This document shows positions 199-15,394 of a DNA stretch of 15,394 nucleotides, piece after piece. The stretch's first letter is position 1; every line of letters begins with the position of its first letter. Source of the DNA: an uncultured Collinsella sp. (lineage in GTDB: Bacteria > Actinomycetota > Coriobacteriia > Coriobacteriales > Coriobacteriaceae); contig CALJNY010000036.1 in the NCBI GenBank assembly GCA_937981515.1, forward strand, positions 1-15,394, in the 5' to 3' direction. A program made the translations under genes and the position numbers. The notes under the pieces are model-generated. The model ran no database searches and was not told the DNA's origin. It worked only from the letters and a program-made list of their open reading frames with translations.

Positions 199-2157
199 AT
201 GCGCAATCTTAAGTTCAACGCAGTCCTCTCGGCTTCGTTCGCCGCCGTCCTTACCGTCGCGTGTTATCCCCTGATAGCACCCGTAATCGCCTGCGCCGCC
301 TCATCGCTCCCCATCGATTGGGTCGCCTGGCTCGACGCCATCGGTTTCGACATGTGGTCGGTCTTCTGGCTTTCCGGGGCATGGCTCGGTCACATTCCGT
401 TCATGTTCGCAGCGTTCTGCCTCCTGTTTCTCGTTCTCCTCGGCTATACGGTCGCAAAGGACGCCGAACGTAACCGGGACGTCGACGAAGGCATCTACGG
501 CGACGCCCGCGTCGTCCGGGGCGCAGCGGAACTCAACCGCCGCAACGATTTCTGGGACGGGTCTGGAACTCCGGTCAGAGCGGGCTTCGTGCTCGGAGCA
601 AACAAGGGCGGTTACTGGTACGACTCATCCGTTCCGCACGCAATCAGCATTGGAAAAACGGGGTCTGGTAAATCGCAATTCCAGGTCTTGGAAGATATGC
701 ATATGTTCCTGGCAGCCGGTTGGAACGTCGTCTCCACCGGAAAGCCCGAGATCCTCGAGCTCACCGCCGACAAGGCGCGGGAGCTCGGCTACGAGACCAT
801 CGTCCTCGACCTGACCGGCTATCCCGGCGCCAGCTCGTACAACCCCATCGGACTCGTAGCCGACGCCGTCGAGGCGGGAGATGCCGACACCGCCGTGAGA
901 ACGGCCCGGCAGGTCGCCGTCGACCTTATTCCGATCGGCGGGGAGAAGAACACGTATTTTCCCAAGGCGGCGCGCAACATGCTCGCCGCCTGCATCCTCG
1001 TCGTCTGCACGGCGGACATCCCGCGTAAACAGAAGAACCTCGCGAGCGTAGCCGCGCTCGTCGAGCGCGGGACCGCCGGCGACGACCCGAAGGACCCCTC
1101 GGCCCCGCTCAAGGATTACATCCGCGGGCTCGGCCCGACGCACCCGGCGTTCTCGCCGGCGTCCGACCTCCTCGGGGACGGCGGGGCGACGACGGCCGGC
1201 AAGAACGTCGTCTCCACCCTCAAGGACGCCCTGAGCATCTTCTCGGACGGGGCGCTCCGCGCCGTGACGTCAGAGAGCAGCGTGTCGATCCGCGACCTCA
1301 TCGAGAAGAAGACGACTGTCTACATCGAAATGCTCGACGAGGGCGATCCGTACGGGGTCGTCTACACCTGCTTCCTCAATCAGTGGTGGCAGATGGCGCA
1401 GAGGGCGTGCAAGGAGAACGGCGGCCGGATGCCTCACGAGACGGCGCTCGTGCTCGACGAGATCGGCAACCTCAACGTCAAGGTCGCTTGCCTGCCGGCC
1501 ATCGCGACGCTCGGACGGTCGATGGGGATTCACGAGCAGCTCTTCGTGCAAAATCTCAAGCAGCTCAATGCCTATAACGATCCTGGCGACGGCGGAGCCG
1601 GGCGCGACAAGTTGATCGGCTCCATCGGCACCAAGGTCGCCCTGTCCCTCTCCGAGCCCGAAGACTTCAAGTTCTTCACGGCGCTCGCCGGAAAGCGGAC
1701 CGTTCGCTCGATGGGAACGTCTAGCCAGAAAGGCGCAGGGCGTTCCTCATCTGGCACGAGTTACAACGAGGCGGCCGTTCCCCTGATAAACGAATGGGAG
1801 TGGCAGAACCGCATCCCCATCCGCGACGGCCTCATCGCGATCAAGGGCGGGGAGAACTCGAAGCCCGGGCGTGAGGGCGTCTTCGAGTTCCCGCTCGACT
1901 ACGCCAACAGGACGCCCGCCGGCCCGTTCTTCGGACTCGGCGACGAACAGGTCGAGCGCGCGAAGCGGGCCGCTTACTACGCCCGCGCGAAAGTCGCCGC
2001 AGAAGGCAACGCATATGAAGCCCCCGCCCCATGGTGTCCCGAATTCGGCACCGGGGACGACGCCGCCGATAAAGAGGAAATCGCCCCAGACGACCCCGCC
2101 AAGGCCGACGAGGACAACGCGACCTTCCCAGACGAGTGGGCAGCCTGGGACGAATAG
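199..2157 (+). CDS. VirD4/TraG-type conjugative coupling ATPase
   Basis: This 652-residue protein is a type IV coupling protein, the inner-membrane ATPase that brings the relaxase-DNA complex to the conjugation channel. Two hydrophobic segments lie near residues 8-33 and 66-86. The soluble part has a Walker A motif GKTGSGKS at residues 152-159 and a Walker B-like ALVLDEIG around D420-E421. The segment near residue 182 (STGKPE) matches the 'DPKGE' region of the family. The C-terminal ~60 residues are acidic and Ala/Asp/Glu-rich, a likely substrate-docking tail. Length is normal for VirD4/TraG. The start is well supported: AGGAGG at 186-191 lies 7 nt before the ATG. The gene follows a MobC-like gene and precedes a relaxase, a classic mobilization arrangement. 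No channel (VirB4 or VirB6) genes are in the window, so self-transmissibility cannot be judged. Confidence 0.93.
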   Translation: MRNLKFNAVLSASFAAVLTVACYPLIAPVIACAASSLPIDWVAWLDAIGFDMWSVFWLSGAWLGHIPFMFAAFCLLFLVLLGYTVAKDAERNRDVDEGIYGDARVVRGAAELNRRNDFWDGSGTPVRAGFVLGANKGGYWYDSSVPHAISIGKTGSGKSQFQVLEDMHMFLAAGWNVVSTGKPEILELTADKARELGYETIVLDLTGYPGASSYNPIGLVADAVEAGDADTAVRTARQVAVDLIPIGGEKNTYFPKAARNMLAACILVVCTADIPRKQKNLASVAALVERGTAGDDPKDPSAPLKDYIRGLGPTHPAFSPASDLLGDGGATTAGKNVVSTLKDALSIFSDGALRAVTSESSVSIRDLIEKKTTVYIEMLDEGDPYGVVYTCFLNQWWQMAQRACKENGGRMPHETALVLDEIGNLNVKVACLPAIATLGRSMGIHEQLFVQNLKQLNAYNDPGDGGAGRDKLIGSIGTKVALSLSEPEDFKFFTALAGKRTVRSMGTSSQKGAGRSSSGTSYNEAAVPLINEWEWQNRIPIRDGLIAIKGGENSKPGREGVFEFPLDYANRTPAGPFFGLGDEQVERAKRAAYYARAKVAAEGNAYEAPAPWCPEFGTGDDAADKEEIAPDDPAKADEDNATFPDEWAAWDE

Positions 2158-2169
2158 GAGGGGGTGGAC

Positions 2170-3138
2170 ATGACGGCCATCAAACAGATCGCGATAACGA
2201 ACGCCCAGCACATGAAGAGCCTATCGGGCTATCTCGACCGGGCGAACGGGAAGCACGACGTTCTCGACTTCGACTCACGGAACCTCACCGACCCCGAGAA
2301 CTGGTCCCGGGAGATGGACCGTACGCGCGAAGCCTACGGGCACAACGAGCCCGGCCGCAAGGGATCGAAGTGCACCTACTGCTACCACCAGATCATCGCG
2401 TTCAACCCCGATGAGTGCGACGTCAACGGTGGGAAGATGTCCGAGGGCGACTGCATGGAATTCGCACGCGAGTGGGTCGAGCGCTACTACCCGAACCAGG
2501 AGGCGGCGTGGGCACTCCACCTTGAGCACTCTAGAGACGGAACCGACCGGTACGCCGTTCATATCGCAATCAACCGAACCGACCTCGAGACCGGCAAGCG
2601 CCTCAACGACGGCAGGGCGTCTCACCAGAAGACTCTTCACGCGGAGAGAATGCGGGGCATGGACGAGCGCTGGGGGCTCGTCCAGCTGGAGCGCGGGACG
2701 CGCAACAGCCGCGTCCACGCCCGGCAGGAGTCGAGGGGCGAGCGGCGGGCCCGCGAAATCGGCTCGAAGGCCGACCCGGGCTTCGAGACCGACCAGGACC
2801 ATGTGCGCCGGGTCGTACGCGAGAGCGTCCGCGAGGTCGCGGCGTCCGGCGCGCCGAACAGGATGCGCGCACTCAACGAGGCCTTGGAGCGGAGGGGCGT
2901 CCACATGCGCCTCAGCCGCGACCGGAACCTCGGGGAGCGCGACCTCGTCTTCGAGTACCGCCCGACATACGACCGCAGGGACGCGCGCGGGCACGCCGTC
3001 AGGAAGGCCGCGATCAGCGGCCGCAAGCTCGGCCGCGGCTTCACGAGGGGCGGCATACAGCACGCCCTGGGCATCGGCGCCGCCGTCTACCGGATGGCGG
3101 AGAGGTCGATGGACGACGGCCGGGACAACGAAATGTAG
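2170..3138 (+). CDS. MobA/VirD2-family relaxase (MOBP-like)
   Basis: This 322-residue protein resembles the relaxase/mobilization nuclease family, which nicks one strand at oriT and stays bound to the 5' end through a tyrosine. The probable catalytic tyrosine is Y21 in the context SLSGYLDR. The metal-binding segment is HLEHSRDGTDRYAVHIAIN followed by RTDLETGKRL, with H120 and H131; where the family usually has H-x-H this protein has A129-V-H131. The C-terminal half is very basic and ends with a GRKLGRGFTRGGI segment like the end of the relaxase domain. I chose the ATG at 2170 because AGGAGG at 2156-2161 is 8 nt upstream; the in-frame GTG at 2164 is only 2 nt from it. The gene starts 12 nt after the VirD4 stop, so the two are co-transcribed. 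It is short for a relaxase, with no primase or helicase domain. Confidence 0.85.
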   Translation: MTAIKQIAITNAQHMKSLSGYLDRANGKHDVLDFDSRNLTDPENWSREMDRTREAYGHNEPGRKGSKCTYCYHQIIAFNPDECDVNGGKMSEGDCMEFAREWVERYYPNQEAAWALHLEHSRDGTDRYAVHIAINRTDLETGKRLNDGRASHQKTLHAERMRGMDERWGLVQLERGTRNSRVHARQESRGERRAREIGSKADPGFETDQDHVRRVVRESVREVAASGAPNRMRALNEALERRGVHMRLSRDRNLGERDLVFEYRPTYDRRDARGHAVRKAAISGRKLGRGFTRGGIQHALGIGAAVYRMAERSMDDGRDNEM

Positions 3139-3176
3139 AAGGGTGCGAGATGCGCCCGGCGAGAGGAGTAATGGCT

Positions 3177-3428
3177 ATGGAAATCAATATCAAGCTCGAT
3201 GCCAAGCTCAAAATGCGCGATGGCATAGCCGAGCTGAGGCTTACCGACAATGTTCCGGATTCCCCCTGGTACCAAGATGGTGCAGGAAAGGATTTCTTCG
3301 ACGCTCTCTGCCGCGTCGATGGAGATGGCGGGGGATTCCGCGTGCGCCGCGCTTCCGGTCACACGGCCGTCCTCGTGGTACGCGACACGGGCATCGATAC
3401 CGGTTGGGCGAACGAGCAACAAGCTTAA
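3177..3428 (+). CDS. Small hypothetical protein, last gene of mobilization operon
   Basis: This gene of 83 codons encodes a protein I do not recognise. It begins MEINIKLDAKLKM and looks like a small mixed alpha/beta soluble domain with alternating hydrophobic residues (GIAELRLTDN, then FRVRRASGHTAVLVVRDTG). There is no signal peptide or membrane segment. Three in-frame ATGs exist (3150, 3171, 3177). The AGGAG at 3164-3168 is spaced 8 nt from the ATG at 3177 but only 2 nt from the one at 3171, so 3177 is preferred. It begins 38 nt after the relaxase stop and ends 13 nt before a strong hairpin, which makes it the last gene of the operon. A role in DNA transfer or element regulation is a guess from context only. 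Confidence 0.55.
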   Translation: MEINIKLDAKLKMRDGIAELRLTDNVPDSPWYQDGAGKDFFDALCRVDGDGGGFRVRRASGHTAVLVVRDTGIDTGWANEQQA

Positions 3429-3441
3429 TCGGCACATCTTG

Positions 3442-3463
3442 AAGAGGGGCCAAGGCCCCTCTT
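3442..3463 (+). terminator. Hairpin terminator closing the mobilization operon
   Basis: A perfect 10-bp inverted repeat, AAGAGGGGCC / GGCCCCTCTT with a 2-nt centre, lies 13 nt after the stop of the preceding gene. The realistic fold is an 8-bp stem with a loop of about 6 nt. The downstream arm ends in TCTTCTCGTCT, which is only moderately T-rich, so termination strength is uncertain. Confidence 0.6.
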
Positions 3464-3524
3464 CTCGTCTCCCGGGACCGGGACGCAACAGGCGTCCCGC
3501 AAGCCCGGGGGACGGCCCCGCAGG

Positions 3525-3587
3525 GCAAGATATCCGTGCGTGCTCGGCGGCTGCAGGACGCCGTGTACGCACGGATACACATCTTGC
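3525..3587 (+). other. Candidate origin of transfer (oriT)
   Basis: A nested inverted repeat is visible: outer arms GCAAGAT (3525-3531) and ATCTTGC (3581-3587), middle arms ATCCGTGCGT (3532-3541) and ACGCACGGAT (3567-3576), and inner arms CGGCG (3545-3549) and CGCCG (3559-3563). The IncP/VirD2-type nick consensus is about YATCCTG^C. Here the + strand reads CATCTTG^C with the cut expected at 3586/3587. The minus strand reads TATCTTG^CCC with the cut expected at 3526/3525; this is one base from the RP4 TATCCTG^CCC. An inverted repeat just 5' of the nick is typical of these origins, and a MOBP-like relaxase is encoded next door. The + strand nick would send the relaxase gene in last, the usual order. 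Confidence 0.5.
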
Positions 3588-3660
3588 ATCGACCGGCAGC
3601 CGCATGTCGGCCCCGTCCGACGAGGCTGCGTCGAGGTGAGCCCCGGCTGAGCCGCGCGCA

Positions 3661-3833
3661 GGGGGACGCGACCCTGGGGAGCATCCCCCGTACGCACGGC
3701 GACCCGGGGCGAGAGGCCCCGGCCGGTGACCACGGCGGAATGATGGCGACCTCTGGGAGCCATCGAATGCAGCCGTTCACCGTCCGGGGCCGGCGTGAGC
3801 GGAGGCGTACGAAACGCGACCCTGGGGAGCGTT
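3661..3833 (+). repeat. Three hairpins sharing an 11-nt loop
   Basis: Three stem-loops present almost the same loop, always closed by GC pairs. Copy 1: loop GACCCTGGGGA at 3670-3680 on stem GGGGGAcGC/GCaTCCCCC. Copy 2: loop GACCTCTGGGA at 3748-3758 on stem GATGGC/GCCATC. Copy 3: loop GACCCTGGGGA at 3818-3828 on stem AACGC/GCGTT. Copies 1 and 3 also share a 17-nt direct repeat (3666-3682 and 3814-3830). The stems differ in sequence but still pair, which suggests selection on structure plus loop. In copy 3 an alternative stem CCCTGG/CCAGGG (3820-3825 and 3835-3840) competes. Confidence 0.6.
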
Positions 3834-3960
3834 GCCAGGGAGCCACAGCGAGAGCGGCGCGGAACGCGGCGCGGGCGCCCCCGCATCCCGGCGGGGACGC
3901 ATCGGCCGAAAGGCCGATCCGACGGGACACGGTGACGCCCGAAGGCATGTGTCCGCCGTG

Positions 3961-3987
3961 CCGTCATTCCCGTCATGCCCGTCATAC
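3961..3987 (+). repeat. Three tandem 9-nt repeats (CCGTCATNC)
   Basis: CCGTCATTC, CCGTCATGC and CCGTCATAC follow each other without gaps and differ at one position only. Such iteron-like tandem repeats often bind a dimeric or multimeric protein, for example at oriT or a replication origin. No binding protein can be named. Confidence 0.6.
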
Positions 3988-3992
3988 GGGTC

Positions 3993-4014
3993 CCAAGGGG
4001 CCTAGGCCCTTTGG
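3993..4014 (-). terminator. Hairpin, probable terminator of the DUF2958/DUF4313 operon
   Basis: CCAAGGGGCC (3993-4002) and GGCCCTTTGG (4005-4014) pair with one G-T position around a TA centre. The hairpin lies 93 nt past the stop of the minus-strand DUF4313-like gene and has the same style (GGGGCC core) as the terminator at 3442-3463. There is no T-tract, so it could instead belong to the neighbouring structured region. Confidence 0.4.
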
Positions 4015-4107
4015 CGCGCAGGGGTCCGGGGATGGCGCGGTCAATCCCCGGGAAACGCCGCGAGGGGCACGCCGTCGCCGGCATGCCCGTGCGGGTGGCG
4101 GCCGTGG

Positions 4108-4710
4108 CTATTCCGCCGCGGTCGCGTAGACCGTCCGGCCCGTCTCGCAGTCGATGGTCTCGGCATCCCCGAAACCGACCCGGACGGCCGCCCATCCGCC
4201 GGCACCCGCCAGCGCGTCGGCCTCGGACCTCGCGGCGGCGATGAGGCGCTCAAGCTCGGCCGAGCCCGCCGGCGCGGCCCCCACCTCGAACGCCCCGCCG
4301 TCGCCTCCCGACTCGTACTCGACGACGACCGTCGAGCCGAGGGCCTCCTCGAGGGTCTCGCTCAAGCCGCCCATGCCGTCGAGGGCGTGCCAGGCGACCG
4401 TGGCCAGCGGGTAGCGGGCCATCCCGGACGCCGCCGAGCGGTCGGCCATCCGGACCGTGCCGGCGGCCTCGAGCGCCTCGAGGAGCGCCGTGGGCGTGTC
4501 GGCGTCGATGGCGATGTTGCCTCGCCCGCGGCACCACTCGGCGGCCGCCGGTACGCTCGCCGTGAGTACGCCCCACTCGGCCATGTAGCCCTCGGAGCGC
4601 GGGTCCGTGGCGTCGAGGAGGAGGACGGCCAGGCCGCCGCCCACGTACTCATCGGCCACGAGGGCGAGGCGGACCGCCTCGCCCATGGAGTCGAACACGA
4701 CCGTGACCAT
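4108..4710 (-). CDS. DUF4313-like accessory protein of mobile elements
   Basis: This 200-residue protein resembles DUF4313 proteins, which occur on integrative elements and have no firm function. The matching part is the N-terminal half: a first strand pair around VRLALVADEYVGGGLAVLLLD, then an acidic loop, NIAIDADT (about residues 65-72), and a segment ending RYPLATVAWHAL that corresponds to the family's 'cxYPLYxF' end. The last ~80 residues are Ala/Glu-rich and less typical, perhaps a fused small domain. It has no signal peptide or membrane helix. The ribosome site is strong: AGGAGGAGG (complement of 4718-4726) lies 7 nt before the ATG. It starts 4 nt after the DUF2958-like gene, so the two are co-translated. 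Its place beside an oriT candidate hints at an anti-defence or establishment role; that is inference. Confidence 0.6.
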   Translation of the reverse strand: MVTVVFDSMGEAVRLALVADEYVGGGLAVLLLDATDPRSEGYMAEWGVLTASVPAAAEWCRGRGNIAIDADTPTALLEALEAAGTVRMADRSAASGMARYPLATVAWHALDGMGGLSETLEEALGSTVVVEYESGGDGGAFEVGAAPAGSAELERLIAAARSEADALAGAGGWAAVRVGFGDAETIDCETGRTVYATAAE

Positions 4711-7315: not shown

Positions 7316-8254
7316 CTATTCGTCGAAGAAATCGGTGTCAACGGCCTTGATCTCGTAGACCTGTCTCGTGCTCACGCCGACGCCGTAGTCGATCATGAGG
7401 CCGGCGAGCGCGGGGCCGTCGACGAGCACGACCGTCTGCCCCAGTAGGCCCTCAGCATATTTGCGGGCATCCTTGGAGAAGCGAGCCGTGGTGATGAAAA
7501 GGCCCTTCGATACGCCCTTTCCGGAAAGCGCCCCGACGAATGCCTGAACCTCCGGCCGTCCAACCGTCCTTTGCGGATCCCACCGCTTAGCCTGGTAGCA
7601 GATGGTTCCAAATCCGAGTCGGTCCTCACGGACGACGCCGTCTATCCCCTCGTCACCACTCTTTTTGGTGACGTCGGCACGGGAGTCCAGGCTCTCGCCG
7701 TAACCCATCGCCACGAGCAGCTTTCCGACCAGGTGCTCGAAGAAATACGGATCTTTTCCCATGATGATCGAAATGAGGTCGTCGGCGAGCGCGTCGCGAA
7801 TCTCGCCGTAGGCAGACTCCATCGCCTCCTGAGGGGACTCCTGGTCCTCCAGCGTCGAAACGCCCTCGGGCTCTGAAGCGTTTTTGGCCTTGCTTGCGGC
7901 CTGATAGCCGTCTTTCCACTTCTTGAATGCCGTGCAGTTCTCATAGAGACCCTTGGCTGTAATGGGTCCGGGATAATCAGAGAGGTACGTCCTGCCGGCA
8001 TCGGTGATACGGTAGGTTCCCTTCTTCTCGCCGTATTCCAGAAGCTTAGCCTTCTCCAAATCGGTGATACCCCAGTACACGCGGTTGTAGAGTCTCGACT
8101 GGCCGCTCTTGAGACGCTCGGCCCGTTCGTCATCGGTCATGTCGAATTCGATCGCCACGGCATCCTGGAGGTCGGTGCCTGCCAGATATCCATCGACATG
8201 CGCCAGCGCTTCAAGGACGGGCCGCATGGTCTCATGCCATTTGGGCATCGTCAT
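7316..8254 (-). CDS. Mrr-type restriction endonuclease
   Basis: This 312-residue protein has the two-domain layout of Mrr. Residues 1-105 look like an Mrr_N winged helix (LSGQSRLYNRVYWGITDLEKAKLL-like core, here YWGITDLEKAKLLEY, then GTYRITDAGRTYL). After a polar linker (about 120-150), residues 165-300 form the PD-(D/E)xK nuclease: E173 in FFEHLVGKLLVAMGYG, D205 in GDEGIDGVV, and Q221-A-K223 in CYQAKRW, so the active site is complete. Mrr enzymes of this type cut modified (usually methylated) DNA and are grouped with type IV restriction. The start at 8254 overlaps the EcsC-like gene by 23 nt; a second ATG at 8248 is equally possible. It is the last gene of the MmeI-EcsC-Mrr unit. If it is methyl-dependent it must ignore the methyl mark of the first gene. 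Confidence 0.88.
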   Translation of the reverse strand: MTMPKWHETMRPVLEALAHVDGYLAGTDLQDAVAIEFDMTDDERAERLKSGQSRLYNRVYWGITDLEKAKLLEYGEKKGTYRITDAGRTYLSDYPGPITAKGLYENCTAFKKWKDGYQAASKAKNASEPEGVSTLEDQESPQEAMESAYGEIRDALADDLISIIMGKDPYFFEHLVGKLLVAMGYGESLDSRADVTKKSGDEGIDGVVREDRLGFGTICYQAKRWDPQRTVGRPEVQAFVGALSGKGVSKGLFITTARFSKDARKYAEGLLGQTVVLVDGPALAGLMIDYGVGVSTRQVYEIKAVDTDFFDE

Positions 8255-9170
8255 CGCTCATCATCCCCTTCATTTCAGCAAAATCAGTAAAAGGCTCAAC
8301 CGCCACTGCGGTCAAGGGGCCTGTCGCCTGTGGCAATGACCTGAGCTCCCCTGCAAGTCTCCTGGACCCGCCCTTGAGGCTGACGAACGTGAGGCCTCCC
8401 GAGATGAACCCACCGACGACCGGAACGACTTTGCTCACCGCGTCGCCGAAACTGCTTTTGGTGATCTTGACGCCGATCCCGGCAAGTACCTTTTTGATGA
8501 TCGGGTAGTAACTTGTCTGCATAAGCGCCTTGTTGGCGACCTTCTTGGCCACATTGGCCTGAACCGTTTTGGAAAACGCCGTCAAGGCGGAGTTGGCACC
8601 GCTCACCCCGGCCATCACGGCCAGGAGAAGGGCGAAGGCCGCCAAGGTCTCATCGTCCATTTCGTCGCAATCGTCGATGAAGGACTGCCAGCCGTAGAGA
8701 TACGCCAGTTTCTGCATGATTCGAAAGGCGTGGACATAGTACTGCGTCACGTCCGCCGGGATCGTCCCGAGCATCGCGAGTCCTCCGGGCAATCCCGCGG
8801 AGAACGAAAGGACGGTCGATTTCTTCGTTTCGAAATCAATGACGTCCCTCGCGATGGAGTCGACAAGGTCGGAATCCATCCCGGCGGCGGCTGGGCTCGT
8901 TGGAATCGCGAGCTCTACCCGCTCGTCCGCAACGCCCCGTTTCCGGAACTCTGAGCGGAGGAAATGGTCGCGCTCGATTGCCACTCCTTTCAGCCTCATA
9001 ACCTTCTTGAGGAAGGCGATGGCACATCTTTGGGCTTCCTCCTCCTGTCGATCGGCCTCGGCCTTTAGGTCCCCAATACCCTCCCCGACACTATCTAACA
9101 CAGATAATTCCGTTCGTTCTTTTGGCTTTGGAATGTTTCTCCTCACGCTACTCACCAACTTTTTCGGCAT
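8232..9170 (-). CDS. EcsC-family protein, probably membrane-associated
   Basis: This 312-residue protein resembles the EcsC family. The signature is GLPGGLAMLGTIPADVTQYY followed by VHAFRIMQKLAYLYG (about residues 126-160), close to the family's 'P.g..a..AD...ll.lq..l...ia..YG' core. Further hydrophobic stretches lie near residues 176-191 (LAAFALLLAVMAGVSG) and 248-263 (VVPVVGGFISGGLTFV), so membrane binding is likely though helices are short. The N-terminal 80 residues are polar and probably helical. Start is uncertain: the ATG at 9170 overlaps the MmeI-like gene by 23 nt and has no clear ribosome site, as translational coupling would allow; an in-frame ATG at 9212 is also possible. EcsC proteins have no known biochemical function. 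Its place inside a nuclease operon suggests a defence role, perhaps as membrane effector or sensor; that is inference. Confidence 0.75.
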   Translation of the reverse strand: MPKKLVSSVRRNIPKPKERTELSVLDSVGEGIGDLKAEADRQEEEAQRCAIAFLKKVMRLKGVAIERDHFLRSEFRKRGVADERVELAIPTSPAAAGMDSDLVDSIARDVIDFETKKSTVLSFSAGLPGGLAMLGTIPADVTQYYVHAFRIMQKLAYLYGWQSFIDDCDEMDDETLAAFALLLAVMAGVSGANSALTAFSKTVQANVAKKVANKALMQTSYYPIIKKVLAGIGVKITKSSFGDAVSKVVPVVGGFISGGLTFVSLKGGSRRLAGELRSLPQATGPLTAVAVEPFTDFAEMKGMMSDDDAQMA

Positions 9171-11934
9171 AAAGACTGAACAGATGGGCGACGATCTTTT
9201 CTTCGTCTCCATCGAAACTCATGCCATATGCAGACTCAACGGCCGCGTCCAAATCAGAATGGGCCTTAACTAAATCGCTGAACAGGAAGAACGAATCGGC
9301 TCCATACAGTATTGCCAAGGAGCAATCAGGGTAATTGGACCTAGCCTTTATAACAGCTTTCGCCCGCTCCTCAATTTCGTTGATGTCGTCTTGGTCAGCA
9401 TCTGGATAGGGAAAGTTGTAGTACACGGATGGAGCATATCGGTAGTCATTTTTCAACCTACCGGCAACGGTTCTCATCCAGGCATTGTGTGTCTGCGACA
9501 TGAGCAACCCGAAGTCAAACATGCTTGCTCCGTCAACGATTACAACGGCGTCGCTCGCCACCACACTTCTGGAGACATAGCCAATAGGAATGTACTTCCG
9601 CCGTGCGGACGAAACTCTAGGAATTATGATGTAGTCGTTCTCCGGCTGCCTAATCTGTGTAAATAGTTGTGGGCTATCAGCGGTCTTGCGAATTCTCGGA
9701 ATTTTGTTTGATGCGCGATACTCACGAACGGCTCTGATACGTTTCATTATTTCAGTGTTGTTCGTATACTCCGCAGGATTAACTCCATCAAGCCAGAGAC
9801 AGTAGCGTGAGAAGTCGGTTTCATTCAGAAACTCGCGGCTTCCAACGAAGGGACGAAATAGCTTTTCGCAATCTGGATATCTACTCAGGAACTGCTTCTT
9901 TTCTTCAGCCGAAAAGAGAAGCTGCCCATTCTCCATAGGCTGACTCCCCTGCGTGACTTTGCAGCCGCGCCGATTAATACACTTTTTCCTGTTTTTAATC
10001 CATACGTCTGGAGCGCTCTTTAGGTATCCATTGATATGAGAAGCGAATATTGGCCCATCAGCGCCGAACAAGACCTTTTTATGGCCATCTTCAAACATCG
10101 AGAAGCCAACGATAACGCACATCACGCCCGCTTTGTCTGAAGCCTCGCTATCCCAAAGGAACGTCGTATACGCAAAATTAATCACGCAGCCCACTTCGGA
10201 AAGAATCTTCCAAAGGGATCCCACTGATTCGCCCTGACAAATGGAATTCGAAGAAACGAAAGCGCATCGAATGTTGGTGCCCTTGGAATAGTCGGCCGCC
10301 TTTTTAAACCAGCCAGCAACATAGTCCAGTTTTCCCGCATTGCTTAACCCATCGAACAGCGAGGAAACATCATTCGATTGTTCTTTTGACTGCATGGCCT
10401 GACCCAAGAACGGCGGGTTTCCGAGGACGTAGTCGACCCTATCAGCCGCGACGACGTCGTTCCAGTCGGTACGTAGCGCGTTGGCGTTGACGATGCCCTC
10501 ATAGTCCGTGAGCGGGAGTTCCTGGTAGACGCGCTGCGTCACTTTTGCGGTGTCAGCGTCCGCCTGCTTCTCGGCGATCCAGAGAGCCGTGCGGGCAACG
10601 CAGCAAGCGAAGTCCTCCAGCTCAATACCATGGAAGTTCTTTAGGTTGACCAGCACGTCGCGATCGCCGGAATCCTCGAAGCTGAACGATGCCTGATCGC
10701 CCTGGAGCTCGAAGAGGATGCGGTTCTCCAGCCGCCTCAGGCACAGGTAGCTCTCCGTCAGGAAGTTGCCTGACCCGGCAGCCGGGTCGAGGATAGAGAC
10801 GCTACCGATCTTTTCATGCAGGTCCTTGAGCGCACGGGTCCTCGCGCCGCCCGCGACGGGCTTGGCGCAGGCCTCATCGAACTCGGCCTTGAGGCCGTCG
10901 AGGAAGAGCGGGTCTATGACCTTGTGGATGTTCTCGGGGCTCGTGAAGTGCTGGCCGTTTGCGCGGCGGTGGTCGTGGGACAGCGCGCCCTCGAAGATGG
11001 AGCCGAAGACCGTGGGGCTCACGCCCGACCAATCGAACTCCTGGCACCCCTCGACGATGAGCGTATGGCGGAAGTTCTCGGACAGGGGCGGAATCTCCGT
11101 CTTCTCGCGGAAGAGGCCGCCGTTCATGTAGGGCAGTTTCTTCAGCCAGGGCTCGGCGTACTTGTCGCGTTCCTCGTCCTTGGTGTCGAGCCAAACGAAA
11201 ATGTCCTTGAGGCCGCGCCTGAGATCGCCTGCCGAGAAGTGGGCGACGTAGTCGCGGAAGGCGTTGGGGGCCACGAGTCCCGAGTCCTCGCAGAACATGA
11301 GGAACATGAGGCGCGTCATGAGCACGGAGAGCGCATGGTGATTCTCGGGCGTGTCGGGGTCATCGAACGCCTCGGCCACCTGGTCATGAAGTTTCGACAT
11401 GATCTTGCCTGCCTCGACGGAAACGGCACGGGAGATCGTGGCCGGGGCCTCTGCCCCGCCCTTGAGGAACTGAATGGCCGCAAGGTTCTTGGGGAGCTCC
11501 GCGAGCGGCAACTTGAAAAGCGGCTCCCGACATAGCGAGTCCCGCTCGCGGTCGAAGACCCAAAACTCGGCAAAATTGCAAGCGATGATGTAGCGCGGCT
11601 GTTGCGAGAGGGGCATGCCCTGGGCGTAGGCGTTGCCCTGCTTCGCGGGCGTCACCTTGCGGCCCTGGCGCGTCTCCTCCTTGGCGAGGTCGATTCCCAG
11701 CGACTTCTGTTCGACAAGGGTCTTGGCCGACGGCATGAAGACGTCGATATACCCATCGTGCGTGCTCGCATCGGTGGAGACGGGCTTCTCGAACTCAAGT
11801 CTCGAGACCGCATCCTCAACACCCAGGACATTCTGATAGAAGTCGATCCAGAACCGTTGCGTGTCCTGGTTCTCATTTCCCTTGTTCGCCCACCTGCTTG
11901 CAAAAGCTTCTGCATCGGCTTTCTTTCCCGGCAT
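9148..11934 (-). CDS. MmeI-like type IIG restriction-modification enzyme
   Basis: This 928-residue protein is a single-chain enzyme that both methylates and cuts DNA. Order of parts: N-terminal PD-(D/E)xK nuclease with D64 (GYIDVF) and E75-x-K77 (VEQK); a helical spacer to about residue 310; an N6-adenine methyltransferase with SAM motif I ILDPAAGSGNF (D383) and catalytic NPPF (N506); then a target-recognition and C-terminal region (about 640-928, with NFPYP near 865). Length matches the MmeI family (~900-950). Key residues are intact, so the enzyme should be active. Start: ATG at 11934 with GTGAGGG 6 nt upstream; an in-frame GTG at 11946 is part of that ribosome site. Hand counts give 60-63% GC in the first half (10501-10560, 10861-10920) but 42-43% in the second (9301-9360, 10021-10080), suggesting a swapped recognition region. 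It heads the EcsC and Mrr genes. Confidence 0.88.
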   Translation of the reverse strand: MPGKKADAEAFASRWANKGNENQDTQRFWIDFYQNVLGVEDAVSRLEFEKPVSTDASTHDGYIDVFMPSAKTLVEQKSLGIDLAKEETRQGRKVTPAKQGNAYAQGMPLSQQPRYIIACNFAEFWVFDRERDSLCREPLFKLPLAELPKNLAAIQFLKGGAEAPATISRAVSVEAGKIMSKLHDQVAEAFDDPDTPENHHALSVLMTRLMFLMFCEDSGLVAPNAFRDYVAHFSAGDLRRGLKDIFVWLDTKDEERDKYAEPWLKKLPYMNGGLFREKTEIPPLSENFRHTLIVEGCQEFDWSGVSPTVFGSIFEGALSHDHRRANGQHFTSPENIHKVIDPLFLDGLKAEFDEACAKPVAGGARTRALKDLHEKIGSVSILDPAAGSGNFLTESYLCLRRLENRILFELQGDQASFSFEDSGDRDVLVNLKNFHGIELEDFACCVARTALWIAEKQADADTAKVTQRVYQELPLTDYEGIVNANALRTDWNDVVAADRVDYVLGNPPFLGQAMQSKEQSNDVSSLFDGLSNAGKLDYVAGWFKKAADYSKGTNIRCAFVSSNSICQGESVGSLWKILSEVGCVINFAYTTFLWDSEASDKAGVMCVIVGFSMFEDGHKKVLFGADGPIFASHINGYLKSAPDVWIKNRKKCINRRGCKVTQGSQPMENGQLLFSAEEKKQFLSRYPDCEKLFRPFVGSREFLNETDFSRYCLWLDGVNPAEYTNNTEIMKRIRAVREYRASNKIPRIRKTADSPQLFTQIRQPENDYIIIPRVSSARRKYIPIGYVSRSVVASDAVVIVDGASMFDFGLLMSQTHNAWMRTVAGRLKNDYRYAPSVYYNFPYPDADQDDINEIEERAKAVIKARSNYPDCSLAILYGADSFFLFSDLVKAHSDLDAAVESAYGMSFDGDEEKIVAHLFSLYAEKVGE

Positions 11935-12090
11935 ACGGACCCTCACTTGATAGCCTTTTCCACTGAGGAAGATTCTACGGGTTCTTCACTTCTATTTAGC
12001 TGGTTTTAGTTTTATTGGCATCTGTTTTGCCTTGGCGGTCGTTGCAATCTGCTCATATTCCGCTCAGGAGTCCTCGCAGCATTGTCAAGA
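11935..12090. other. AT-rich spacer between defence operon and tRNA
   Basis: This 156-nt stretch is clearly more AT-rich than its surroundings and must hold the promoter of the minus-strand MmeI operon. TTGACA occurs on the minus strand at 12088-12083, but no -10 sits at a proper distance. The element/chromosome boundary may lie here or at the tRNA 3' end. No gene is seen. Confidence 0.4.
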
Positions 12091-12129
12091 TAAAAGAAAA
12101 CAGCTCAGAGGAACAATACCTCTGAGCTG
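12091..12129 (-). terminator. Rho-independent terminator of tRNA-fMet
   Basis: CAGCTCAGAGG (12101-12111) and CCTCTGAGCTG (12119-12129) form a perfect 11-bp stem with a 7-nt loop. On the minus strand the stem is followed by TTTTCTTTTA, a strong T-tract. It begins 11 nt after the encoded CCA of the tRNA. Confidence 0.92.
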
Positions 12130-12139
12130 CTAAAAGTCT

Positions 12140-12216
<77 letters not shown>

Positions 12217-12247
12217 ATGTCTGGGCGCCTCATGTGCGCAAGAAAGA

Positions 12248-12276
12248 ATATTACGCGGGAGTTCGGTAAACGGCAA
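12248..12276 (-). promoter_or_regulatory. Promoter of tRNA-fMet
   Basis: On the minus strand TTGCCG (12276-12271) and TAATAT (12253-12248) are 17 nt apart, each 4 of 6 to consensus, with the tRNA 5' end 31 nt beyond the -10. Confidence 0.5.
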
Positions 12277-12413
12277 GGAAAATCTCGTAGAGCATAATTC
12301 CTTCATATTTAAAACCCCTCAGCCCCTATCACCGTAAACGAATCGCAGCCGAGCGCCGTCGACGGCACGTATACAATGGTGCGCGTCCTTTTATGCCGAC
12401 ACCGGGAGTAGAC

Positions 12414-13187
12414 ATGCTGCTCGCTATCGATATGGGAAACACGCAGACGGCCATGGGCCTGTTTGACGGAGACGAGCTGGTGCAGTCGTGGCGCATGCCC
12501 ACCGACCGCTCCTATACCGCCGACGAGATCCATGTGCGCCTGATGGGTTTCTTTAAGATGTACGGCCTTTCGCTCGATGCGGTCGACGCGATCGCCTTTG
12601 CGGGCGTGGTGCCGCAGCTCTCGCGCGAGTGGCACGCCGTGGCCGACCGCATTGCCGCGGACGCCATCGTCATCGGGCCGCAGACGGCCGCCGTAACCAA
12701 GCTGCGGGCGGCGCGCCCCCAGGCCGTTGGTGCCGACCGCATCGCCAACGCCGTCGCTGCCGAGACCTTCTATGGCGCGCCGGCGATCGTGGTGGACTTT
12801 GGCACCGCGACCAATATCGACGTCATCGATGAGGACGGTTATTACATTGGCGGAGCGATCGCGCCGGGCATTCGCATCTCCATGGACGCGCTTGCCGCCC
12901 GTGCCGCCAAGCTCGCCAGCGTGCCGCTCGAGGCGCCCGAGCACGCCATCGGCCGCGATACCGAGGAGTGCATCAAGGTCGGCGCCGTAACGGGCGCCGC
13001 CGCCATGGCTGAGGGCCTGGTCGCGCGCATGAAGCGCGAGCTGGGCCGCGAGGATGCCACCGTTATCGCCACGGGCGGTCTCGCCAGCATCGTCGCCGAT
13101 TCGACCGATGCCTTCGACGTGGTCGACGGACAGCTCACCATCAAGGGTATCTGCGAAATCTACCGCCGCATGCAGGAGCTGGGATAG
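12414..13187 (+). CDS. coaX: Type III pantothenate kinase
   Basis: This 257-residue enzyme phosphorylates pantothenate with ATP, the first step of coenzyme A synthesis, in the cytoplasm. It is full length for CoaX and carries all signature motifs: the ATP phosphate loop D6-M-G-N-T10, GADR (106-109, with the proposed catalytic Asp108), DFGTATNID (from D128), and GGAIAPGI (146-153). A late ATGGL motif near residue 224 (VIATGGLASIV) completes the ASKHA fold. The start at 12414 is chosen because homology begins at MLLAIDMGNT and GGGAG lies 6 nt upstream; an in-frame ATG at 12393 adds seven atypical residues. TACAAT at 12372-12377 may be the -10. Downstream it converges on the biotin-ligase-like gene; CoaX and BirA genes are often linked or even fused in bacteria. 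Confidence 0.95.
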   Translation: MLLAIDMGNTQTAMGLFDGDELVQSWRMPTDRSYTADEIHVRLMGFFKMYGLSLDAVDAIAFAGVVPQLSREWHAVADRIAADAIVIGPQTAAVTKLRAARPQAVGADRIANAVAAETFYGAPAIVVDFGTATNIDVIDEDGYYIGGAIAPGIRISMDALAARAAKLASVPLEAPEHAIGRDTEECIKVGAVTGAAAMAEGLVARMKRELGREDATVIATGGLASIVADSTDAFDVVDGQLTIKGICEIYRRMQELG

Positions 13188-13265
13188 GACAGGGGCTTAA
13201 GTCGAACACGCCCGATGCCACAGTCCCCGCAAAGGCTCGCCAAACCTATTCCTCAGACAGGCGAA

Positions 13266-13293
13266 ACCCTCCCCGGCACAGGCCGAGGAGGGT
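13266..13293. terminator. Terminator between convergent coaX and biotin-ligase-like gene
   Basis: ACCCTCC (13266-13272) pairs with GGAGGGT (13287-13293), and inside it CGGC (13274-13277) pairs with GCCG (13282-13285) around an ACAG loop, with one C-A mismatch between. On + it is followed by CTTGTTGTC. The site lies 78 nt after the coaX stop and 40 nt after the other stop, so it probably serves both. Confidence 0.7.
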
Positions 13294-13332
13294 CTTGTTG
13301 TCATCGTTGTCTTTGCGCGCTGGCGCCTCGCG

Positions 13333-14034
13333 CTACAGCCCGCGAATCCGTACGGCCTCGGGCGGAAACTCCTGCTCGCCGGCATCGGTCTTGATGGTCG
13401 CGCGGCCCCAGATGTCCAGGCCCGCAAACACACCGACCGCAAGCGGCAAGCCGTTGGGAGACACCGCCGCAACCTGGCGGCCCAGCAGCGGCACCATGTC
13501 GAAGTACTCGCCCAGCACGGGAGCCAGCGGCCCTGCGGCGCCTTGCGGCGTGTTGGCAACAACCGCCCAGGCGTCCACGCGGGCCAGCACGGCGGCGGCC
13601 AGCGTCTCGAGCAGCGCTTCGTCAGCCACGTCCACACCAAGCTCGCTCAGCGCCGAACGCTCAATATCCACCGTCACGGCACCGAACATGCCCGCAGCAC
13701 CGGCACCGCCGTTCACGGCAACACGCGCGAGCGACGTCTCAAACGCAGGCGCACCGCACACGATATCGCTCGGCCACTGGATACCCACCTTACCGGCAAG
13801 GCCCAGCCCCGGTGTCGACGCCGCGCCCACGAGCGCGTCCATCATGCCCATCGCGGCCACAAACGGCAGGCCGTGGAAGGCATGCATGTTCACATCCGGG
13901 CGCACGACCAGCGAAAACGTCAACGACGCCTCGCCCGCGCTCCAAGCGCACCAGCCCGCGGACGCACCCTCGCGGCCCGCGTCACGCGCGGCGTCAAGCT
14001 CGGTACCGGCGGCAACAGCATTCATCTCGATCAT
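13333..14034 (-). CDS. Biotin-protein-ligase-like protein (degenerate BirA domain)
   Basis: This 233-residue protein has the outline of the biotin/lipoate ligase catalytic domain: SLTFSLVVRPDV (residues 37-48), then a helix rich in Ala/Met, then QWPSDIV (86-92) in place of the usual KWPNDL, and a C-terminal SH3-like end with LLGRQVAAVSPNG and GVFAGLDIWGRATIKT. The biotin-binding loop GRGRxGRxW is poorly kept (AGREGASAGWCAW), and the segment that normally has the catalytic lysine in 'KxxGILVE' reads FETSLARVAVNG without that lysine. It may therefore have lost ligase activity or changed its substrate. There is no N-terminal helix-turn-helix repressor domain. It starts directly after the FolP-FolK stop, with no spacing and a weak ribosome site, so translation is coupled. 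Linkage with coaX supports the family call. Confidence 0.62.
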   Translation of the reverse strand: MIEMNAVAAGTELDAARDAGREGASAGWCAWSAGEASLTFSLVVRPDVNMHAFHGLPFVAAMGMMDALVGAASTPGLGLAGKVGIQWPSDIVCGAPAFETSLARVAVNGGAGAAGMFGAVTVDIERSALSELGVDVADEALLETLAAAVLARVDAWAVVANTPQGAAGPLAPVLGEYFDMVPLLGRQVAAVSPNGLPLAVGVFAGLDIWGRATIKTDAGEQEFPPEAVRIRGL

Positions 14035-15394
14035 CTACATACGCCCCAATTCGCCCACGATATGGCCCACGCGGTCCTCGGGCTCCTTGACCTCGACACC
14101 GTTGTAGCGGAAGAACCGCGCCGGGTCGTGCATCAGGTCCTCGAGCGGCACCAGCACAAAGTCGCGTTCGCCGATCAGCGGATGCGGCAGGCGCAGCTTT
14201 TTGCCGCCGTGGGTCTCGCCGTCCATCCACAGCAGGTCCAGGTCGATGGTACGCGGACCGTTGGCCTTGGCCTTTTTGGAGCGGTCGCGCCCCAGCTCGG
14301 CCTCGATCTTCATGAGCTCGTCGAGCAGCACCAGCGGCGCAAGCTCGGTCTTGATCTCGATGACGGCGTTGGCAAACGCGTCCTGGCGCGTCTCGTAGGC
14401 AGGCTCGCTCTCGTAAATCTTGGAGGAGTTAGACACGCAGGTGAGTGGAATCTCGGCGATCATCTCGCGTGCGGCGCGGATGTTGTCGCAGCGATGCCCC
14501 AGGTTGGAGCCCACGGCCACAAACGCGCGGCGCGGCTGTGGCTTGGCAACCGCCCAGTAGCCGTTCAGGAACTGCGCAAAACCCGCGGCGTCGTGCACGC
14601 GCACGATGTTGGCACCGGCCTGGATAGCGCCCAGGCACACGCCAAACGTAGCGGCATCGCGCTCGGCGGCCTCGGTCACGCCCGAGACGGCGCCCACAAA
14701 GCGCTTGCGCGACACGGCGCACATGAGCGGATAGCCCAGTGACGCCATCTTGGCAGTCTCGCGCTGGATGACGATGTCCTCGTTAGCCGACTTACCAAAG
14801 CCCGGGCCAGGATCGATGCAGATGCGGTCGCGCGACACGCCGGCATGGATGAGCGTGCGGGCCTGGTCGGACAGAAAGCCCATGACGCGGCGCATGATGG
14901 GCGCCGAATCGGGCAGGGTGAAGCGGCGGAGCTGCGAGGTGGGCACGTAGGCTTCCTCGCGGCGGGCGCTGCGGCGCATCATGGCGGCCAGGCGGTCGCT
15001 GGGCTCTGGCGCGGCTTCGGTAGCTGCGGGCACGGTCTCGGGCTCAGCGGCGGCGGGGGCAGCCTGCTCGGCAGCCGGCGTCTCTGGCTCGGACTCGGGC
15101 GCGGGCTCCGGTTCGCCAAACGGCAGCGAGGGCTGTACCACACCGCCCGGAAGCTTGGCCTCAACCTTGGGCTCGCCCAGCAACTTGCCGCGACGGCGAC
15201 GGGCCGGCTTCTCGGCCTCGCGCGCGGCCTCGGCAGCCGCTTCGCGTGCCTTCTCGGCAACAAACGCCGCAGCCGAGGTATCGAGCTGCACCGTCGCGTG
15301 CGTGCGTGCGGGTGTGGCGACCTCGCCGGCGTGCATTACGATGACGCCGCAGGTGCTCGTCTTAACGAACTCAACCATCTTGGGATCGGTGAAA
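14035..15394 (-). CDS. Dihydropteroate synthase-HPPK fusion (FolP-FolK), 5' end missing
   Basis: This bifunctional folate enzyme runs off the right edge; the visible part is 452 codons. Numbering from the internal Met at 15378, the N-terminal piece FTDPKMVEFVK...GVIVMHAGE is dihydropteroate synthase (FolP) up to its MH strand. It resumes near residue 158 with SAPIMRRVMGFLSDQA, then ICIDPGPGFGKSANEDI (the pterin-binding DPGxGFxK motif), SRKRFVG and AAxFGVCLGAIQAGANIVRVHD, the end of the barrel. Between them, residues 20-155 are an Ala/Pro/Glu-rich, probably disordered insert. The C-terminal 160 residues are HPPK (FolK): FVAVGSNLGH, then GPRTIDLDLL (the Mg/ATP motif) and LPHPLIGERDFVLVPL. The two activities are consecutive: FolK makes the pterin diphosphate that FolP joins to p-aminobenzoate. 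The stop abuts the biotin-ligase-like gene. Confidence 0.9.
   Translation of the reverse strand, partial: FTDPKMVEFVKTSTCGVIVMHAGEVATPARTHATVQLDTSAAAFVAEKAREAAAEAAREAEKPARRRRGKLLGEPKVEAKLPGGVVQPSLPFGEPEPAPESEPETPAAEQAAPAAAEPETVPAATEAAPEPSDRLAAMMRRSARREEAYVPTSQLRRFTLPDSAPIMRRVMGFLSDQARTLIHAGVSRDRICIDPGPGFGKSANEDIVIQRETAKMASLGYPLMCAVSRKRFVGAVSGVTEAAERDAATFGVCLGAIQAGANIVRVHDAAGFAQFLNGYWAVAKPQPRRAFVAVGSNLGHRCDNIRAAREMIAEIPLTCVSNSSKIYESEPAYETRQDAFANAVIEIKTELAPLVLLDELMKIEAELGRDRSKKAKANGPRTIDLDLLWMDGETHGGKKLRLPHPLIGERDFVLVPLEDLMHDPARFFRYNGVEVKEPEDRVGHIVGELGRM

What the first reader, a model, noticed from the sequence alone, without database searches (positions are those of the whole stretch)
3661..3833. 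Three hairpins with different stems but one shared 11-nt loop
Loops GACCCTGGGGA, GACCTCTGGGA and GACCCTGGGGA sit on unrelated but fully pairing stems (GGGGGAcGC/GCaTCCCCC, GATGGC/GCCATC, AACGC/GCGTT), always closed by GC. Conserved loop plus changing stems within one locus is the pattern of a repeated recognition element: either an RNA module bound by a protein or a ssDNA hairpin read during conjugative transfer. I know of no described RNA family with this loop. A partly similar GACCC-GGGG stretch at 3701-3709 may be a decayed fourth copy.
Basis: partly seen in the sequence, partly recalled or inferred. Interest (0 to 1): 0.7.

Follow-up and report, generated by a model that had tools for sequence, protein, structure and literature searches.

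The report
Folded leader DNA beside transfer origin
The three look-alike hairpins are part of a conserved, strongly folded stretch of non-coding DNA next to what looks like the start point for DNA transfer between gut bacteria, so it probably folds on the single strand that enters the new cell first.

Summary
In detail: three hairpins with unrelated stems share the cap GC-GACCNNNGGGA-GC at 3670-3828 (0 of 1000 shuffles give three). The "11-nt loop" is a GA/GA mismatch pair enclosing two covarying base pairs and a 3-4 nt loop. They belong to a ~330-nt fold conserved in Collinsella and other families of its order, with strong covariation. The fold follows an inverted-repeat hairpin whose 3' arm is ATCTTGC in 29 of 30 loci, one base from the published MOBP nick consensus. 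A MobA/VirD2-like relaxase lies on its 5' side in 29 of 29 loci that have one, whichever way the gene points. Promoter candidates are absent within 250 nt in 17 of 30 loci, against 0 of 52 for tmRNA and RNase P. Best reading: oriT plus a folded single-stranded leading region, probably a second-strand start (like ICEBs1 sso1). Shown: conservation, covariation, position. Inferred: folded strand (G.A caps; the wobble test is inconclusive), nick, ssDNA state, priming. Main rival: an oriT-linked RNA such as SGI1 sgm-sRNA. No Rfam family matches.

The parts
199..2157 (+). VirD4-like coupling protein gene (T4CP)
   Evidence: Pfam T4SS-DNA_transf E 1.6e-26, TraG-D_C E 6.2e-13
2164..3138 (+). MobA/VirD2-like relaxase gene
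   Evidence: Pfam Relaxase PF03432, E 4.4e-12
3441..3464 (+). hairpin GAAGAGGGGCCAAGGCCCCTCTTC 3' of the mob genes (no T run in the window; T-tailed stems at about this place in several relatives)
   Evidence: fold; relatives
3526..3586 (+). oriT-like inverted-repeat hairpin CAAGAT-[variable stem]-CACATCTTG
   Evidence: present in 30 of 31 loci tried, the 31st (L161) has CCAGG/CCTGG
3586..3587 (+). putative nick ATCTTG|C (inferred, not shown)
   Evidence: 3' arm ATCTTGC exact in 24 of 25 distinct segments, 5' arm GCAAGAT in 14 of 25; MOBP consensus (C/T)ATCCTG(C/T) from passages of PMC3772185
3587..3918 (+). folded leading region (the conserved element)
   Evidence: DNA-parameter fold of 3524-3918 z -7.4, RNA fold of 3440-4110 z -8.9; covariation
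3661..3689 (+). GA-capped hairpin I (cap 3670-3680)
3699..3710 (+).
   Evidence: fold; relatives
3734..3774 (+). module II with GA-capped hairpin II (cap 3748-3758)
   Evidence: model R2 hit, 68.1 bits; this sequence was in the training set
3795..3855 (+). module III GTGAGCGGAG..GCGAGAGC with GA-capped hairpin III (cap 3818-3828)
   Evidence: model R1 hit, 60.9 bits; this sequence was not in the training set

Best explanation
The region is an oriT and the first ~330 nt of the leading region of a mobilisation system of Coriobacteriia. The relaxase probably nicks after ATCTTG at 3586, so that the + strand is the transferred strand and the hairpin array 3587-3918 is the first DNA to enter the recipient. 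There it folds as single-stranded DNA. Helices punctuated by G.A mismatches and closed by tight caps keep it folded and give recognition sites. The most likely task is to start complementary-strand synthesis (an orientation-specific single-strand origin placed 3' of oriT, as in ICEBs1). Shown here: the conserved fold, the covariation, its position beside relaxase genes and the nick-like hairpin. Inferred: that the + strand is the one that folds, the nicking, the ssDNA state, the priming role.
For: Covariation: A6, 26 rows, 91.6% of cells paired (shuffles 65.1%), 101 double changes (shuffles 30.8), score 0.567 against at most 0.105 in slid versions; A5, 24 rows, 97.0% (shuffles 81.7%), 38 double changes against 7.8. 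Folded strand: conserved GA/GA mismatches and GNRA-like caps are on the + strand and would be TC/TC on the other (inference). Position: the nick-like hairpin lies at 26 of 26 loci whose relaxase scores 143 bits or more (GA caps in 21 of these 26), also beside the broken relaxase of G002; not seen in the 5 weaker loci fetched. Polarity: relaxase on the 5' side in 29 of 29, gene on the same strand 20, opposite 9. Nick-like hairpin in 30 of 31 loci tried; ATCTTGC more constant than its pairing partner (24 against 14 of 25 distinct segments, p 0.002); the more distant relaxase of L161 (25% identity) goes with CCTGG, still paired. NikA-like ribbon-helix-helix genes in the four relatives tested. Promoter-like score of 8 or more within 250 nt 5': 3 of 30 elements, 16 of 26 tmRNA, 22 of 26 RNase P; no candidate at all: 17 of 30, 0 of 26, 0 of 26. 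Intrinsic terminator right before the element in L160, T-tailed stems within 300 nt 5' in 7 of 30. sso1 of ICEBs1 also lies 3' of oriT (PMC4595007).
Against: ATCTTG differs by one base from the published ATCCTG core. A second CACATCTTG stands at 3433-3441 in the window, and ATCTTG also recurs 5' of the hairpin in L142 and L143 (3 of 30 loci). The wobble test for the folded strand is inconclusive: my first count (23 G.T, 5 A.C, p 0.0009) chose hairpins by a rule that favours G.T; with a rule blind to both it is 23 to 8 (p 0.01), with a symmetric rule 23 to 16 (p 0.34), over all 46 candidates 27 to 16 (p 0.13). Folding energy does not tell the strands apart (DNA z -7.4 and -7.5). T-tailed stems lie 3' on the element's strand in 5 of 30 loci, and L101 has a good promoter-like site 5' (score 10.5), as an RNA would. 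GNRA-like caps and G.A motifs also suit RNA. In L095, L096 and L144 1.9-2.9 kb separate relaxase and element. L101, L102 and L091 have no relaxase of this family in the DNA read. L146 has the nick-like hairpin with a short fold and no GA cap. No DNA match to the window's element in plasmids or phages, so no known sso is matched by sequence; that negative is weak, since the plasmid NZ_OY725718.1 carries a relative and was missed too. Many loci are close relatives, so the 29 of 29 stands for far fewer independent events.
Confidence: 0.48

Rival explanations
1. It is a structured non-coding RNA encoded beside oriT, needed for or regulating mobilisation, like sgm-sRNA of SGI1; the oriT may lie inside the primary transcript.
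For: Very ornate fold with GNRA-like caps and G.A motifs, z -8.9 with RNA parameters; precedent of an oriT-adjacent sRNA processed from a longer transcript (PMC9299015, abstract and passages); T-tailed stems 3' in 5 of 30 loci and a good promoter-like site in L101.
Against: Candidate promoters within 250 nt are rare compared with tmRNA and RNase P of the same genus; 0 promoter-like sites in window 3001-4200 on either strand; T-tailed stems within 300 nt 5' in 7 of 30 loci. A distant promoter is not excluded.
Confidence: 0.31
2. It is an ssDNA promoter of the Frpo/ssi kind that lets host RNA polymerase transcribe leading-region genes or make a primer on the incoming strand.
For: Position in a leading region and strong hairpins; Frpo works by mimicking duplex DNA (PMC11541004 passages).
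Against: No -35/-10 pair in window 3001-4200 on either strand, and the conserved parts are caps and internal loops, not promoter boxes.
Confidence: 0.08
3. It acts as duplex or cruciform DNA: an enlarged oriT whose repeats bind accessory relaxosome proteins or the coupling protein in the donor.
For: Directly next to the nick-like hairpin and mob genes; the wobble counts do not clearly favour one strand.
Against: Stem sequences turn over while pairing persists; duplex binding sites would conserve sequence. The conserved GA/GA mismatches make sense on one strand only.
Confidence: 0.1
4. Ordinary GC-rich inverted repeats without function.
For: High GC content; inverted repeats are frequent here.
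Against: Shuffle controls and compensatory changes across families.
Confidence: 0.01

Closest known systems
sso1 of ICEBs1 (single-strand origin; PMC4595007, passages and section 20)
   Same: Non-coding, stem-loops, downstream of oriT; sso1 is orientation-specific and the present element keeps one polarity
   Different: sso1 has three stem-loops similar to pBAA1 sso; here ~330 nt with several modules, G.A-punctuated helices and repeated caps; no sequence match found; function untested
MOBP oriT of RP4/VirD2 type (PMC3772185, passages)
   Same: Inverted repeat directly 5' of the nick sequence, MobA/VirD2-like relaxase; NikA-like RHH partner in the relatives tested
   Different: Core ATCTTG instead of ATCCTG; nick sequence itself paired to a 5' arm; large conserved fold directly 3' of it
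sgm-sRNA of Salmonella genomic island 1 (PMC9299015, abstract and passages)
   Same: Encoded next to oriT and mobilisation genes, needed for transfer
   Different: sgm-sRNA has a mapped promoter; promoter-like sites are mostly absent within 250 nt here
Frpo/ssi ssDNA promoters (PMC11541004, passages)
   Same: Folded ssDNA in a leading region
   Different: No -35/-10 boxes found here
STAXI motif (PMC2864571, section 26)
   Same: Repeated structural motif near DNA-handling genes, RNA or ssDNA in doubt
   Different: Tandem pseudoknots; no Rfam hit here
Large ornate RNAs OLE, ROOL, GOLLD (PMC12286853, search listing only)
   Same: Large and ornate
   Different: No Rfam match; oriT-linked; promoter candidates mostly lacking

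Membership tests
MOBP-type oriT | Inverted repeat immediately 5' of the nick sequence | tested here: met
   30 of 31 loci tried, L161 with a variant
MOBP-type oriT | Core nick hexamer ATCCTG | tested here: not met
   ATCTTG in 29 of 30, ATCTCG in 1; L161 TTCCTG. So it is called oriT-like, not filed as a MOBP oriT
MOBP-type oriT | Relaxase with MobA/VirD2-like nuclease domain nearby | tested here: met
   PF03432 in window, L099, L103, L161; tblastn match in 29 of 32 loci
MOBP-type oriT | Cleavage with covalent 5' attachment | not testable with these tools
   needs a nicking assay
single-strand origin (sso) | Non-coding, stem-loop rich, fixed orientation on the transferred strand | tested here: inconclusive
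   stem-loops and fixed polarity to the relaxase gene shown; that the + strand folds and is transferred is inferred, wobble counts do not settle it
single-strand origin (sso) | Sequence match to a known sso-bearing replicon | tested here: not met
   no blastn match in plasmids or phages at E 1e-5; PMC4595007 notes that structure may matter more than sequence
single-strand origin (sso) | Promotes second-strand synthesis | not testable with these tools
   needs an ssDNA accumulation assay
Frpo/ssi ssDNA promoter | -35 and -10 boxes in the stem | tested here: not met
   0 found in window 3001-4200, both strands
independently transcribed sRNA (e.g. sgm-sRNA) | Promoter 5' of the element | tested here: inconclusive
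   3 of 30 with score 8 or more, 17 of 30 none; only 250 nt searched
Rfam families (4227 models) | Covariance-model match over the element | tested here: not met
   none in the window at E 1 or in L089, L095, L101, L156 at E 0.5; L160 only a sub-threshold Atu_C7 match at the 5' part, 25.7 bits against 45, E 0.05; other loci not scanned

The most novel reading that the evidence does not exclude
A new class of element: an ornate, multi-domain fold made of single-stranded DNA, built with the devices of large structured RNAs (G.A punctuation, interchangeable tight caps, conserved internal loops), carried at the 5' end of the conjugative strand behind the relaxase and acting in the recipient before the strand becomes double.
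Probability: 0.33. Interest if true: 0.85.

Novelty: new variant of a known kind. Interest (0 to 1): 0.63.

Why it matters
How an incoming conjugative strand is made double, and how its 5' end is handled, is known from few model elements. This gives about 30 natural variants of a folded leading region in gut Actinomycetota, tied to one relaxase clade, with strong covariation that defines the structure. It also offers an oriT signature for elements that typing tools miss: the Collinsella plasmid NZ_OY725718.1 is listed as non-mobilizable although it carries an annotated relaxase gene and this element. If it is an RNA instead, it is a new oriT-linked RNA class.

Tried and rejected
Rejected: a known RNA family. 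A decayed fourth copy. Occurrence outside the class: of the 48 stretches found by pattern in genome contigs the six with the module and its frame are Collinsella or Coriobacteriaceae (L022, L029, L038, L050, L061, L062). Not all 48 were scanned with model R1; of those that were, an Aridibacter (L048, E 0.00065), a Nitrososphaerales MAG (L064, E 0.0012) and four Streptomyces (E 0.017-0.04) gave weak matches that I did not follow. GCGACCNNNGGGAGC hairpins in rumen Clostridia were not followed. The one viral-contig hit lacks the stem. A phylum-wide search with R2 gave 7 of 396 genomes: two known carriers of the order and five weak matches (24-31 bits) whose surroundings I looked over only by eye and which show no nick hairpin. 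Searches with R1 beyond the genus added 6 genomes and no more, partly because only 13 candidates per genome were scored. The conserved block 3988-4110 was first taken for oriT; it also occurs apart from the element and I did not see it after the element in L001 and L003, so it was dropped. The PDB gave no relaxase match at E 0.1. Papers: searches, in an open-licence library only, listed none that I recognised as describing this element; I opened five papers (PMC2864571, PMC9299015, PMC3772185, PMC4595007, PMC11541004), for passages or single sections.

Rows dropped: tmRNA 26 of 28 loci (L177 left out without cause, L184 short flank) and RNase P 26 of 28 (L205, L207 short flanks) were used. One search had 46 distinct candidates, 38 with at least 5 pairs counted. 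The 19 segments include at least 3 that are not the element (L102 11418, L149 4842, L151). Of 35 relaxase rows, G279 and G322 were not fetched. My search for the nick hairpin allowed more variants in the 5' arm than in the 3' arm; only L161 failed it, and L091 was not put through it (one search finds one arm-like word there). The element intervals used were set by me from earlier calls. Models R1 and R2 were built from some of the sequences later counted, and A5 and A6 are fitted to them.

Full report
Observation. The hairpins are real and at the stated places. A structural descriptor finds three on the + strand of the whole window and none on the - strand; shuffling 3440-4020 a thousand times gives 0.011 on average and never three. 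The loop is better written GA-CC-NNN-GG-GA: tandem G.A mismatches enclosing two base pairs and a 3-4 nt loop. Relatives bear out the inner pairs: GA-GG-GATG-CC-GA and GA-AG-GATG-CT-GA occur in the same frame; among 38 distinct hairpins the inner pairs are CC/GG 25, GG/CC 6, CT/GG 2, TC/GG 2, AA/TT 2, AG/CT 1 (the two AA/TT cases are doubtful).

The larger element. The region 3440-4110 folds far better than shuffles (RNA z -8.9 for the + strand and -7.3 for the - strand). Fourteen of 58 relative genomes, 13 of the same genus, have DNA similar to some part of it, in several only to 3988-4110. In one search the named carriers of the module are Collinsella aerofaciens, C. phocaeensis, Collinsella sp. 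and Coriobacteriaceae MAGs. The model R1 of module I/III hits 13 of 43 same-genus genomes and 17 of 395 genomes of the order, in 6 of 123 genera. Modules: an outer GTGAGCGGA..GCGAGAGC frame with a GNA/GNA internal loop, a GA-capped stem inside it, and a middle module with two covarying R-Y pairs between internal loops. GAGCG and GCGAGAG both occur within 520 nt of the nick-like hairpin in 27 of 30 loci, not in L144, L146 and L150. Some loci replace GA caps by hairpins with CCAGTGA/CCAGTGG loops.

Covariation. On A6 (26 rows fitted to R1) 91.6% of cells pair against 65.1% in shuffles; 15 of 17 pairs have a change on both sides (shuffles 11.2); the score is 0.567 against at most 0.105 in slid versions. 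On A5 (24 rows fitted to R2) 97.0% against 81.7%, 10 of 13 pairs with double changes (shuffles 4.7). A test that does not use a fitted alignment: of 19 non-redundant segments picked by flanking sequence alone, native halves fold at -21.4 kcal/mol on average and swapped halves at -13.2; in 12 of 19 the native beats all 18 chimeras (at least three segments are not the element, one of them among the 12).

Which strand. The conserved GA/GA mismatches and GNRA-like caps stand on the + strand; on the other strand they would be TC/TC. This points to the + strand but is an inference. My first wobble count (23 G.T, 5 A.C) used a selection rule that favours G.T. Recounted: 23 to 8 with Watson-Crick pairs alone as the rule (p 0.01), 23 to 16 with a symmetric rule (p 0.34), 27 to 16 without a rule (p 0.13); on the fitted alignments 19 to 5 (A6) and 5 to 4 (A5). 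Cells are not independent. The test leans to the + strand and does not settle it. Folding energy does not tell either.

Surroundings. The window has a VirD4-like coupling protein and a MobA/VirD2-like relaxase just 5'. The relaxase was found in 32 of 392 genomes of the order, 35 rows. All 26 rows with 143 bits or more have the nick-like hairpin in the DNA fetched around them, 21 of the 26 with GA caps; so does the broken relaxase of G002; the five weaker rows that I fetched (G351, G348, G337, G311, G313) do not show it; G279 and G322 were not fetched. In the 32 element loci collected, 29 hold a relaxase, always on the 5' side of the + strand: 20 on the same strand, 9 on the opposite strand. 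L091, L101 and L102 hold none, nor do the remaining parts of the contigs of L101 and L102. NikA-like RHH proteins are encoded in L090, L101, L103 and L161, the four tested.

An oriT-like start. The element begins with a hairpin CAAGAT-[stem of free sequence]-NNATCTTGC. It was found in 30 of 31 loci tried; L161, whose relaxase is only 25% identical, has CCAGG/CCTGG at this place, and L091 was not tried by that search. The 3' arm is ATCTTGC in 24 of 25 distinct segments, the 5' arm GCAAGAT in 14 of 25 (Fisher p 0.002, with the caveat on my search pattern). So the 3' arm carries a sequence constraint beyond pairing. The published MOBP nick consensus is (C/T)ATCCTG(C/T), with a more variable inverted repeat upstream (PMC3772185, passages). 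ATCTTGC is one base away. A second CACATCTTG lies at 3433-3441 in the window, and ATCTTG recurs 5' of the hairpin in L142 and L143 (3 of 30). If the nick is at 3586, the transferred strand is the + strand, its 5' end is C3587, the fold is the first DNA to leave, and the mob genes come last whatever their orientation. This is inference from sequence; no nick was shown.

RNA or ssDNA. Within 250 nt 5' of the hairpin 17 of 30 loci have no TANNNT-type promoter candidate and 3 of 30 score 8 or more; the same scan gives 16 of 26 for tmRNA and 22 of 26 for RNase P of the genus, with none empty. In the window no promoter-like site exists on either strand of 3001-4200. L160 has a textbook terminator just before the element and 7 of 30 loci have T-tailed stems within 300 nt 5'. 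Against this, 5 of 30 have T-tailed stems 3' of the hairpin and L101 has a good promoter-like site. The SGI1 sgm-sRNA shows that an RNA beside oriT can be essential and can come from a distant promoter (PMC9299015, abstract and passages). I put the ssDNA readings ahead of RNA by a little under two to one.

Function. [quoted passage not shown]). The present element has the same place, if the nick is right, and is larger and more ornate. Frpo promoters are another folded leading-region ssDNA (PMC11541004, passages), but no promoter boxes were found. I commit to a second-strand start with the caps as recognition or stabilising elements, and mark this step as inferred.

Standing. No Rfam family matches the element in the window or in four of five relatives scanned, and the fifth has only a sub-threshold match. 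My paper searches listed none that I recognised as describing it. I rate it a new variant of a known kind (leading-region ssDNA structure next to oriT), with an open chance that it is a class of its own.

Noticed in passing
window 3961-4110: Three CCGTCAT-type repeats, an inverted repeat (CCAAGGGGCCTAGGCCCTTTGG) and a conserved block follow the element; similar DNA follows the element in L005/L006 and L105 and occurs without it elsewhere. Possibly a further binding region or replication origin.
   Followed up: partly
window 3433-3441: A second copy of the nick-like word CACATCTTG, just after the small ORF and 85 nt before the oriT-like hairpin; L142 and L143 have one too.
   Followed up: partly
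window 12124-15393: From 12124, just beside the tRNA-Met (12140-12216), the window is 95-97% identical to the chromosomal locus L164 of G014, with coaX-like and folate genes; the mobile element probably ends at this tRNA.
   Followed up: partly
L099 (G007:C50, 12,492 bp): First and last 55 bp are identical, so this is probably a circular molecule of about 12.4 kb; in it the element points away from the coupling protein and relaxase genes.
   Followed up: partly
L236 (NZ_OY725718.1): Collinsella aerofaciens plasmid of 27,038 bp, listed as non-mobilizable by MOB-suite, has an annotated relaxase gene and, exactly, the nick hairpin and element of L145.
   Followed up: yes
L025, L031, L032, L053: Rumen Clostridia carry an intergenic-looking sequence with a GCGACCNNNGGGAGC hairpin (CACTGCGACCNNNGGGAGCAG or alike); tRNA or tmRNA genes lie in the same loci.
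   Followed up: no
L033, L040, L047, L051: Four Streptomyces genomes share a conserved stretch GTGAGCGGAG..GCGACCACAGGGAGCCTGCAT with the same hairpin core.
   Followed up: no
L142, L143, L144, L157, L158: Hairpins with CCAGTGA/CCAGTGG-type loops occur where other loci have GA caps.
   Followed up: partly
window 7316-8254 (-) and 9148-11946 (-): Mrr restriction endonuclease and a large protein with weak, sub-cut-off matches to DNA methyltransferases of defence systems; likely cargo.
   Followed up: no
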